This document shows positions 21,765-22,554 of a stretch of DNA of 64,000 nt, piece after piece. The first letter of the stretch is position 1; every line of letters begins with the position of its first letter. Made by a program: the position numbers and the translations under genes. Source of the DNA: Ochrobactrum sp. RH2CCR150. GTDB lineage: Bacteria; Pseudomonadota; Alphaproteobacteria; Rhizobiales; Rhizobiaceae. The notes under the pieces are model-generated. The model had not been told where the DNA came from and did not search any database. It worked only from the letters and a program-made list of their open reading frames with translations. The DNA lies in assembly GCA_014138095.1 (NCBI GenBank), contig JACGXE010000006.1, positions 62,001 to 126,000 of the forward strand, in the 5' to 3' direction.

Positions 21765-21986
21765 TCACGAAAGACCGTTGATCATATCCGGACGGAAGCC
21801 GGCCCAGTGGGTTTCTCCGGCGACAACGACCGGCACCTGACGGTAGCCCAGCCCCGTGACGAGATCGTAAGCGGCCATATCTGCAGAAATGTCGATGACC
21901 TGATAATCGATCCCCTGACGGTCGAGGGCACGGGTGGTTGCAGTGCACTGGACGCAAGCTGGTTTGCTATAGACGGTGACGTTCAT
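21765..21986 (-). CDS. nrdH: NrdH glutaredoxin-like redox protein
   Basis: A 73-aa NrdH, the electron donor to class Ib ribonucleotide reductase. It shows the redox motif CVQC at residues 11-14 and the NrdH-specific C-terminal WAGFRPDMI. The ATG at 21986 follows GAGGAAGAA and matches the family length; the frame is open to 22070 but that extension has no homology. First gene of the operon behind a long leader containing the cobalamin riboswitch. Confidence 0.93.
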   Translation of the reverse strand: MNVTVYSKPACVQCTATTRALDRQGIDYQVIDISADMAAYDLVTGLGYRQVPVVVAGETHWAGFRPDMINGLS

Positions 21987-22063
21987 TTCTTCCTCACTGG
22001 ATTGGGCACAGATTGCCTGAAACGCAATTGCCGTATCGGGACAGATGCGCATGAGAGATCGTT

Positions 22064-22082
22064 CGCGCATGGAACATGCGCG
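22064..22082 (-). other. Hairpin in the nrdHIEF leader
   Basis: A perfect 8-bp stem (CGCGCATG / CATGCGCG) with a three-base loop, between the riboswitch and nrdH, 78 bases before the nrdH start. It lacks a T-run. It could be part of an expression platform or a Rho-related structure; this role is not shown by the sequence alone. Confidence 0.4.
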
Positions 22083-22320
22083 TTAAGGCGAACAAAATCG
22101 GGGAACAGTCAGCGATGCCTGGACACCACTGAACCGCGCAAAATCACCTCTGGAAGGGTGGGCCTGAACTGAGAGAACAATACAAACTAGACAATGTGTC
22201 AGACATGGACTTCACCCCGAAGCTTGTGAGCGGGCATTCGGAGTAGCAATCGGCAAGAAGCACATCTCGCCTCAATGATTGCACACCAACCGGACACCCC
22301 GCCCGTGGACGTTCATTGCT

Positions 22321-22505
22321 CAAGGCAGGTCTCCTGGCTCACGGGTCAGCGCTCTTGTCGGTCTTCCCAGCTTACGCCAGTGACGTGATCAACAAGAACT
22401 CACCGCTTACAGTTGCGGGGGCAGCTTCGGCTTCGTCTCAACCTTCATGGCGGCGACTCACCGAATTCCCTCTTAGCTTTCGACTCATCGAATCGAAAGA
22501 ACCTA
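22321..22505 (-). ncRNA. Cobalamin riboswitch in the nrdHIEF leader
   Basis: Read on the minus strand, the leader has the conserved cobalamin-riboswitch elements in order: AAGAGGGAATTCGGTGAG (22476-22459), the B12-box core GCTGCCCCCGCAACTGTAAG (22424-22405), CACTG followed by GGGAAG, and the closing GAGCCAGGAGACCTGCC (22338-22322). About 330 bases separate it from the nrdH start. Known family members bind adenosyl- or methylcobalamin and shut off downstream genes. Here the target is a B12-independent ribonucleotide reductase, so it should be off when B12 is plentiful. Confidence 0.93.
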
Positions 22506-22507
22506 GA

Positions 22508-22554
22508 ACACTATATATAGTAGCCGAAGTTAAAAGACCGTCAACGGATAGTTG
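22508..22554 (-). promoter_or_regulatory. nrd promoter with NrdR box
   Basis: The sequence ACACTATATATAGTA at 22508-22522 closely matches the NrdR box, the 16-bp AT-rich palindrome bound by the deoxynucleotide-sensing repressor NrdR. On the minus strand TTGACG (22544-22539) lies 17 bases before ACTATA, so the box covers the -10. A weaker palindrome, CAAC-N5-GTTG at 22542-22554, lies about three helical turns away centre to centre and could be the second box of a pair. Transcription would begin just ahead of the riboswitch. Confidence 0.8.

What the first reader, a model, noticed from the sequence alone, without database searches (positions are those of the whole stretch)
21765..22554. Class Ib RNR under both a cobalamin riboswitch and an NrdR box
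The nrdHIEF operon encodes a B12-independent reductase, yet its leader has an almost textbook cobalamin riboswitch, and its promoter is covered by ACACTATATATAGT, an NrdR-type box. The cell would make this enzyme only when B12 is scarce and dNTP pools are low. B12-riboswitch control of a class I RNR is established for Streptomyces coelicolor nrdABS; seeing it on a class Ib Mn-type operon together with NrdR predicts a B12-dependent class II enzyme (NrdJ) elsewhere in the genome. The 330-base gap and lack of a T-run suggest a Rho-type or other long-range platform.
Basis: partly seen in the sequence, partly recalled or inferred. Interest (0 to 1): 0.8.

Follow-up and report, generated by a model that had tools for sequence, protein, structure and literature searches.

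The report
B12-switched backup ribonucleotide reductase operon
A vitamin-B12-sensing RNA switch sits in front of the genes for a B12-free DNA-precursor enzyme, so the cell probably makes this backup when its B12-dependent enzyme cannot work; the switch appears to act through a tiny leader gene rather than on the enzyme genes directly.

Summary
The nrdHIEF leader carries a cobalamin riboswitch (RF00174, 134.6 bits, window 22521-22307, minus). One NrdR-type box overlaps its promoter. NrdJ and NrdR are encoded elsewhere in the genome. B12 control fits the comparison: of 41 genomes with NrdJ (alphaproteobacterial set), 40 have the riboswitch upstream of nrdHIEF; four without NrdJ lack it (a fifth, a partial MAG, is left out). 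One of the four keeps an eroded remnant. A same-genus genome in which no NrdJ was found has a weakened aptamer.

The 330-nt gap is not a long-range platform. The platform is a conventional Shine-Dalgarno-sequestering one, but its target is a short leader ORF (window 22206-22144, 20 codons), not nrdH. All 105 distinct long leaders examined have such an ORF, 101 of them 102-135 nt after the B12 box, about where nrdH itself starts in short leaders. A covarying hairpin lies between ORF and nrdH in most leaders outside the window's group.

How leader-ORF translation reaches nrdH is unproven: folding gives no unmasking of the nrdH Shine-Dalgarno, and no rut signature was seen. I favour polarity or Rho-type termination. 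Riboswitch-to-leader-ORF relays are published for Mycobacterium tuberculosis; this is a new variant.

The parts
22517..22544 (-). sigma-70-type promoter TTGACG-16-TACTAT
   Evidence: TTGAC-type hexamer at the same place in most leaders listed
22508..22523 (.). NrdR-type box (palindrome) overlapping the -10 and the expected start of transcription
   Evidence: 2 mismatches; 1 match in window, 0.14 expected; 118 of 120 leaders have a match with up to 5 mismatches at this place
22307..22521 (-). cobalamin riboswitch aptamer RF00174
   Evidence: 134.6 bits, E 1.1e-33
22416..22420 (-). L5 CCCCG, proposed kissing partner of L13
   Evidence: sequence; L5 motif located in 120 of 120 rows, one of them (L045) apparently mis-located; the pairing itself is inferred
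22324..22339 (-). B12 box AGCCAGGAGACCTGCC
22291..22305 (-). P13/L13 hairpin CGGGC-GGGGT-GTCCG
   Evidence: stem differs on both sides between lineages while the L5 C-run is kept; P13-like sequence in 107 of 110 long leaders (not L018, L022, L109)
22237..22245 (-). anti-Shine-Dalgarno strand UACUCCGAA
   Evidence: helix of 6 bp or more including GGG of the SD in 100 of 110 leaders; partition functions
22210..22222 (-). Shine-Dalgarno hairpin CUUC-GGGGU-GAAG of the leader ORF
22144..22206 (-). leader ORF (uORF), 20 codons, MSDTLSSLYCSLSSGPPFQR
   Evidence: equivalent ORF in all 105 distinct long leaders; S[GD]PP in 29 of 34 uORFs of the genus and near kin
22109..22132 (-). hairpin just after the leader ORF
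   Evidence: -12.1 kcal/mol; conservation not tested
22064..22082 (-). hairpin HP-B, CGCGCATG-TTC-CATGCGCG
   Evidence: fold. The counterpart covaries in 72 leaders from outside this group; homology of the window's stem is inferred, and it ends 77 nt before nrdH instead of 27-51
21765..21986 (-). nrdH
   Evidence: (TIGR02194), (Glutaredoxin)
21317..21751 (-). nrdI
   Evidence: TIGR00333, 164.1 bits
19122..21341 (-). nrdE (class Ib alpha; start codon uncertain)
   Evidence: TIGR04170, 1291.4 bits, query from 21269
18105..19094 (-). nrdF (class Ib beta)
   Evidence: TIGR04171, 482.4 bits

Best explanation
A B12-independent class Ib ribonucleotide reductase serves as backup to the B12-dependent class II enzyme NrdJ and is controlled in two layers. 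(1) NrdR-type box on the promoter: presumed repression when dNTPs suffice (inferred). (2) A cobalamin OFF switch in the leader: with B12 bound, loop L5 kisses L13. That frees an anti-Shine-Dalgarno strand to cover the Shine-Dalgarno of a short leader ORF, and the ORF is not translated. Without B12, the L13 strand takes up the anti-Shine-Dalgarno and the leader ORF is translated. (3) Loss of leader-ORF translation lowers expression of nrdHIEF, most likely through polarity or Rho-type premature termination before nrdH. Supported here by comparison and folding: the aptamer, P13, the anti-SD/SD alternation, the leader-ORF position, the covarying hairpin of related leaders, and the co-occurrence with NrdJ. 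Inferred: ligand binding, NrdR binding, translation of the ORF, and the final relay to nrdH.
For: Aptamer 134.6 bits. NrdJ PRK07562 2398.8 bits against cut-off 1737 and NrdR 171.2 bits in the same genome. Riboswitch upstream of nrdHIEF in 40 of 41 genomes with NrdJ and 0 of 4 without, one partial MAG left out; in 40 of these 40 the B12 box lies inside an Infernal RF00174 hit. The NrdJ-less Neorhizobium locus L038 has no cobalamin hit even at E up to 10 yet aligns with remnants of the leader. G095, where no NrdJ was found, has a 76.5-bit aptamer against 105.4-141.8 in the other 29 same-genus loci scored. Start codon at the leader-ORF position in 105 of 105 distinct long leaders, 104 ATG and 1 GTG. 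In the same genome the riboswitch of the MesX-MetE operon starts its gene 116 nt after the B12 box, against 117 for this leader ORF. Holding only L13 unpaired raises SD:anti-SD pairing from 0.24 to 0.76 on average over 95 leaders; other stretches give 0.28. Hairpin HP-B in 72 leaders: 82.8% of cells paired (shuffles 74.0, slid controls 19.5-46.1) and 74 cells changed on both sides (shuffles 27.6 +- 9.0).
Against: No expression, binding or ribosome data. The peptide is weakly constrained: frame-0 pN/pS 0.18 to 1.04 by group, overlapping off-frame values; the S[GD]PP count conditions on the motif. No rut-like C>G excess in the leader. The nrdH Shine-Dalgarno is predicted equally open with or without a ribosome on the leader ORF (0.44 and 0.45, 101 leaders). 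Paracoccus yeei (L083) and three Halomonas-type loci (L059, L065, L073) have NrdJ but no riboswitch at nrdHIEF. The partial MAG without NrdJ over the cut-off (G004/G101) keeps a 141.8-bit aptamer, and G081, whose NrdJ frame is broken, keeps 113.2 bits. Three long leaders lack the P13 sequence, two of them (L018, L022) in genomes with NrdJ. HP-B: the number of pairs with changes on both sides (6) is reached by 54 of 500 shuffles; in the window's own group the best hairpin stands at that place in only 5 of 25 leaders. The L13-hold test on ten short leaders closed the start region by more than 0.1 in five, opened it by 0.1 or more in two and left three about unchanged.
Confidence: 0.6

Rival explanations
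1. The riboswitch acts directly on nrdH by a long-range or Rho platform, and the leader ORF is incidental.
For: No intrinsic terminator; nrdH has its own Shine-Dalgarno; peptide mostly unconserved.
Against: Start codon, Shine-Dalgarno hairpin and anti-SD recur in the long leaders at the place where nrdH or mesX starts when it comes first. L13-hold folding acts on the leader-ORF SD.
Confidence: 0.2
2. The leader peptide itself matters: a stalling or regulatory peptide (GPP or PPP motifs) sets expression.
For: S[GD]PP near the C-terminus in 29 of 34 uORFs of the window's genus and close kin, duplicates included, with changes mostly at third positions; PPP in 37 of 50 uORFs from the Rhizobium search.
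Against: The S[GD]PP count conditions on the motif; pN/pS near 1 in several groups; the Ensifer group and all but two of the sixteen 11-codon uORFs lack PP.
Confidence: 0.12
3. The riboswitch is a relic without function here and NrdR alone controls the operon.
For: An NrdR-type box persists in four NrdJ-less loci that lack the riboswitch.
Against: 29 of 30 same-genus aptamers score above 105 bits; the exception is from a 99%-complete genome without NrdJ. P13 stems differ on both sides between lineages.
Confidence: 0.05

Closest known systems
Streptomyces coelicolor nrdABS B12 riboswitch (recalled, Borovok et al. 2006; paper not seen)
   Same: Cobalamin riboswitch on a class I RNR in an organism with class II NrdJ; NrdR also involved (recalled)
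   Different: Class Ia, not Ib; no leader ORF known to me
M. tuberculosis ppe2 B12 riboswitch with uPPE2 (PMC11260477; outline and abstract, sections 20 and 22)
   Same: B12 OFF switch whose Shine-Dalgarno target is a short upstream ORF, with anti and anti-anti elements
   Different: There uPPE2 overlaps ppe2 (AUGA) and works by termination-reinitiation; here the stop is 95-220 nt before nrdH
M. tuberculosis pe20 Mbox (PMC12810186; outline and abstract, discussion)
   Same: Translational platform on a small upstream ORF plus Rho-dependent termination
   Different: Magnesium, unrelated aptamer; Rho-dependence reported there, only inferred here
Cobalamin riboswitches with an L5-L13 kissing loop (PMC9600662; passages)
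   Same: Aptamer, B12 box, P13/L13
   Different: Target here is a leader ORF

Membership tests
Cobalamin riboswitch (RF00174) | Covariance-model match above gathering score | tested here: met
   134.6 against 31.5 bits
Cobalamin riboswitch (RF00174) | P13 hairpin whose loop complements L5 | tested here: met
   (stem varies on both sides; CCCCG/CGGGG in the window); kissing itself not shown
Cobalamin riboswitch (RF00174) | Binds cobamide and changes expression | not testable with these tools
   needs in-line probing and a reporter
NrdR-controlled promoter | NrdR box at the promoter | tested here: met
NrdR-controlled promoter | Two tandem boxes about three helical turns apart (recalled) | tested here: inconclusive
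   within 36 nt nothing better than 8 mismatches apart from the box and its own overlapping offsets; one search shows no conserved second box to the eye
NrdR-controlled promoter | nrdR gene in genome | tested here: met
   171.2 bits against 124.65
Class Ib RNR operon | nrdH, nrdI, nrdE, nrdF over cut-off | tested here: met
Class II backup partner | NrdJ in genome | tested here: met
Riboswitch-gated leader ORF | Conserved start codon and SD under the platform | tested here: met
Riboswitch-gated leader ORF | Translation of the ORF required downstream | not testable with these tools
   needs mutants
Rho-dependent attenuator | rut-like C-rich, G-poor stretch | tested here: not met
   best C minus G in 60 nt is 8.7 in the leader against 14.4 inside nrdH

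The most novel reading that the evidence does not exclude
A widespread two-stage relay in Rhizobiaceae-type bacteria: B12 switches translation of a leader ORF, and that translation, read through a region of about 100 nt that usually holds a conserved hairpin, decides whether the class Ib RNR operon is transcribed. The riboswitch thereby lost direct contact with its gene and tracks the presence of NrdJ.
Probability: 0.42. Interest if true: 0.65.

Novelty: new variant of a known kind. Interest (0 to 1): 0.52.

Why it matters
It links the choice between B12-dependent and B12-free DNA precursor synthesis to one RNA element in a large group of soil and host-associated bacteria. Natural absence of NrdJ together with erosion of the riboswitch gives an evolutionary test of the backup-enzyme idea. 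It also points to a riboswitch-to-leader-ORF relay outside mycobacteria that recurs across genera, which makes the relay step testable in harmless rhizobia.

Tried and rejected
Long-range or terminator platform: no intrinsic terminator; nrdH SD openness unchanged by a ribosome on the leader ORF. Rho signature by C>G content: not found. Strong peptide conservation: not general. Second NrdR box: not found. Order-wide pattern of NrdR box plus B12 box: only 3 of 297 genomes; the pattern is exact and the draw spans 52 families, so I do not use it as a prevalence estimate. A note of mine said the L038 leader ORF had lost its start; the alignment shows GTG where the relative has ATG, so that note is wrong. 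The NrdH query was in a wrong frame; corrected. In one search the S[GD]PP table is anchored on the motif, so its third-position excess (10 changes in 4 third positions, 1 in 8 first and second) is not an independent test. L115 was mis-detected, dropped (motif), kept wrongly placed in the set of 110 used, and re-read.

Rows dropped: fold test, 95 of 105 distinct leaders (those with wider spacing or without the loop or SD motif left out); nrdH accessibility, 101 leaders; hairpin pair counts, 72 leaders (same-genus-type leaders, five odd ones and repeats left out).

Full report
What is there. The minus strand of window 22544-18105 holds a promoter, an NrdR-type box, a cobalamin riboswitch and nrdHIEF. 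The aptamer scores 134.6 bits, E 1.1e-33, and is the only gathering-level Rfam match in the window. The four genes pass their family cut-offs. The NrdR-type box has two mismatches to the recalled consensus and is the only match in the window with up to three (0.14 expected). It overlaps the -10 of TTGACG-16-TACTAT, so transcription should start close to the 5' end of the aptamer. A box with up to five mismatches stands at this place in 118 of 120 leaders, repeats included. I found no second box.

The genome. The window's genome (5.54 Mb, 40 contigs) has five cobalamin riboswitches, NrdJ and NrdR. The closest NrdF among the fetched loci is that of Brucella haematophila, 98% identical, so the organism appears to belong to the Ochrobactrum side of that genus. 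Another of the five riboswitches precedes a MesX and core-MetE pair, that is, B12-independent methionine synthesis. Two others precede a BtuB-like receptor and a periplasmic binding protein, both below the cut-offs of their best models. The fifth was seen only as sequence and looks like cobalt-transport genes, from recall.

Link to NrdJ. Among the 46, 41 have NrdJ over the cut-off. Of these 41, 40 have a B12 box upstream of nrdHIEF, and in 40 of 40 the box lies inside an Infernal RF00174 hit. The exception is Paracoccus yeei. Of the five without NrdJ over the cut-off, one is a partial MAG, left out; its nrd riboswitch scores 141.8 bits as L100, from what appears to be the same genome. The other four, from three genera (Neorhizobium huautlense, two Pseudochrobactrum, Bartonella bacilliformis), have none, but keep an NrdR-type box. 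Bartonella choladocola, with NrdJ, has the riboswitch. Among the 33 others, four have NrdJ: one has a B12 box (L072, labelled Nocardioides, not checked by Infernal) and three Halomonas-type loci have none. These genomes are related, and the counts are not independent events.

Erosion. The Neorhizobium leader L038 gives no cobalamin match even at E up to 10. Aligned to its relative L017 it keeps P13-like sequence, the leader-ORF region (with GTG as start) and the downstream hairpin. In the window's genus 32 of 35 genomes have NrdJ over the cut-off. The three without are G101 (72% complete, the partial MAG), G081 (NrdJ in broken pieces, 85% complete, 7% contamination) and G095 (99% complete, none found). 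I fetched 30 of the 35 leaders. The nrd aptamer of G095 scores 76.5 bits, against 105.4 to 141.8 in the other 29, with changes in L5, L13 and the B12 box. G081 keeps 113.2 bits. Two genomes, G082 and G102, show only NrdJ matches. G088 carries class Ia nrdAB directly behind a cobalamin riboswitch; G091 has the same arrangement by position and open frames, its proteins not run against families.

The gap. The distance from B12 box to nrdH is bimodal: 118-129 nt in ten loci and 248-415 nt in 32, the window included. Every long leader has a short ORF. Of 105 distinct long leaders, 101 start it 102-135 nt after the box and four have wider spacing (L018, L106, L107, L108). That is about where nrdH starts in short leaders and where mesX starts in the window's own genome (116 nt). 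Start codons are ATG in 104 and GTG in one. In the 104 measured, ORFs have 9-28 codons (median 20) and the stop lies 95-220 nt (median 108.5) before nrdH. The ORFs were located by a motif that asks for ATG, so the ATG frequency is partly by construction, but no long leader failed the search apart from L115, which has GTG and was first mis-read. L102, whose B12 box departs from the motif, is outside the 105; it also has the ORF.

Platform. P13 stems differ on both sides between lineages, and P13-like sequence is present in 107 of 110 long leaders. A helix of at least 6 bp between the upstream strand and the GGG of the Shine-Dalgarno is the best one in 100 of 110. In partition-function folds of 95 leaders, keeping only L13 unpaired, as kissing with L5 would, raises SD:anti-SD pairing from 0.24 to 0.76 and lowers SD openness from 0.40 to 0.15. 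Holding other 5-nt stretches gives 0.28 and 0.39 on average; L13 beats that mean in 88 of 95 and the best other stretch in 65 of 95. For the window SD openness falls from 0.56 to 0.01 when L13 is held and the 5' flank is also blocked. On ten short leaders the same test closed the nrdH start region in five, opened it in two and changed little in three; for mesX it fell from 0.47 to 0.34.

Between leader ORF and nrdH. Outside the window's group the most stable small hairpin ends 27-51 nt before nrdH in 69 of 80 distinct leaders; in the window's group in 5 of 25, where inserted stretches shift it. On 72 distinct leaders outside that group it is paired in 82.8% of cells against 74.0 in shuffles and 19.5-46.1 in slid controls, with 74 cells changed on both sides against 27.6 +- 9.0. 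The number of pairs with such changes (6) is not exceptional, 54 of 500 shuffles reaching it. The window has a stem of the same look at 22082-22064. Its role is unknown.

Peptide. pN/pS in frame 0 ranges from 0.18 to 1.04 by group and overlaps the off-frame values. In the window's genus and near kin 29 of 34 uORFs, repeats included, carry S[GD]PP near the end. One exception (L104) has an inserted stretch inside the ORF, and L115 does carry SSGPP when read from its GTG. In the Rhizobium search 37 of 50 uORFs have PPP. I treat the peptide as probably secondary.

Relay. Folding does not support unmasking of the nrdH SD by leader-ORF translation (0.44 and 0.45, 101 leaders). The leader shows no rut-like bias. 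What remains is polarity, Rho-type termination or mRNA decay. I commit to termination or polarity as most likely, without direct evidence.

Literature. In the held library no paper has nrdHIEF together with B12 and riboswitch or with cobalamin riboswitch and ribonucleotide reductase. A class Ib query gave one paper on M. tuberculosis (listing only). A 2013 survey of riboswitch regulons (PMC3766115) has a category 'isozymes of B12-dependent enzymes'; 'nrd' does not occur in its main text (passages), and its additional files were not seen. Rodionov et al. 2003 was seen only as a reference, so a prior prediction there cannot be excluded. The nearest published mechanisms are the M. tuberculosis ppe2 B12 switch and the pe20 Mbox.

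Noticed in passing
L174 (G088) and L175 (G091): Class Ia nrdAB directly downstream of a cobalamin riboswitch in two same-genus genomes (family search run for L174 only); each fetched stretch holds two cobalamin riboswitches in opposite orientations.
   Followed up: partly
L002 and L179: MesX plus core MetE (B12-independent methionine synthesis) behind a cobalamin riboswitch with the same platform spacing in the window's genome.
   Followed up: yes
L038:6590-7105: Eroded riboswitch in a genome without NrdJ over the cut-off, with promoter, NrdR-type box, leader ORF (GTG) and hairpin retained.
   Followed up: yes
L104, L106-L108, L115: Inserted, partly palindromic-looking stretches or wider spacing in or near the leader ORF in several same-genus leaders.
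   Followed up: no
L006 (reverse strand, position 813): A weak NrdR-type box (3 mismatches) upstream of nrdJ.
   Followed up: no
L100:2656-2778 and L105:513-634: ar14 small RNA (RF02344) within 1-2 kb of the nrd riboswitch in two same-genus genomes.
   Followed up: no
L046 and L054, upstream of nrdH: Pseudochrobactrum stretches hold clustered tRNA genes, GCACCG-type palindromes and a far-upstream NrdR-type box.
   Followed up: no
window 22493-22521 (+): Promoter-like site TCGAAA-17-TATAGT on the opposite strand, at the start of the aptamer.
   Followed up: no
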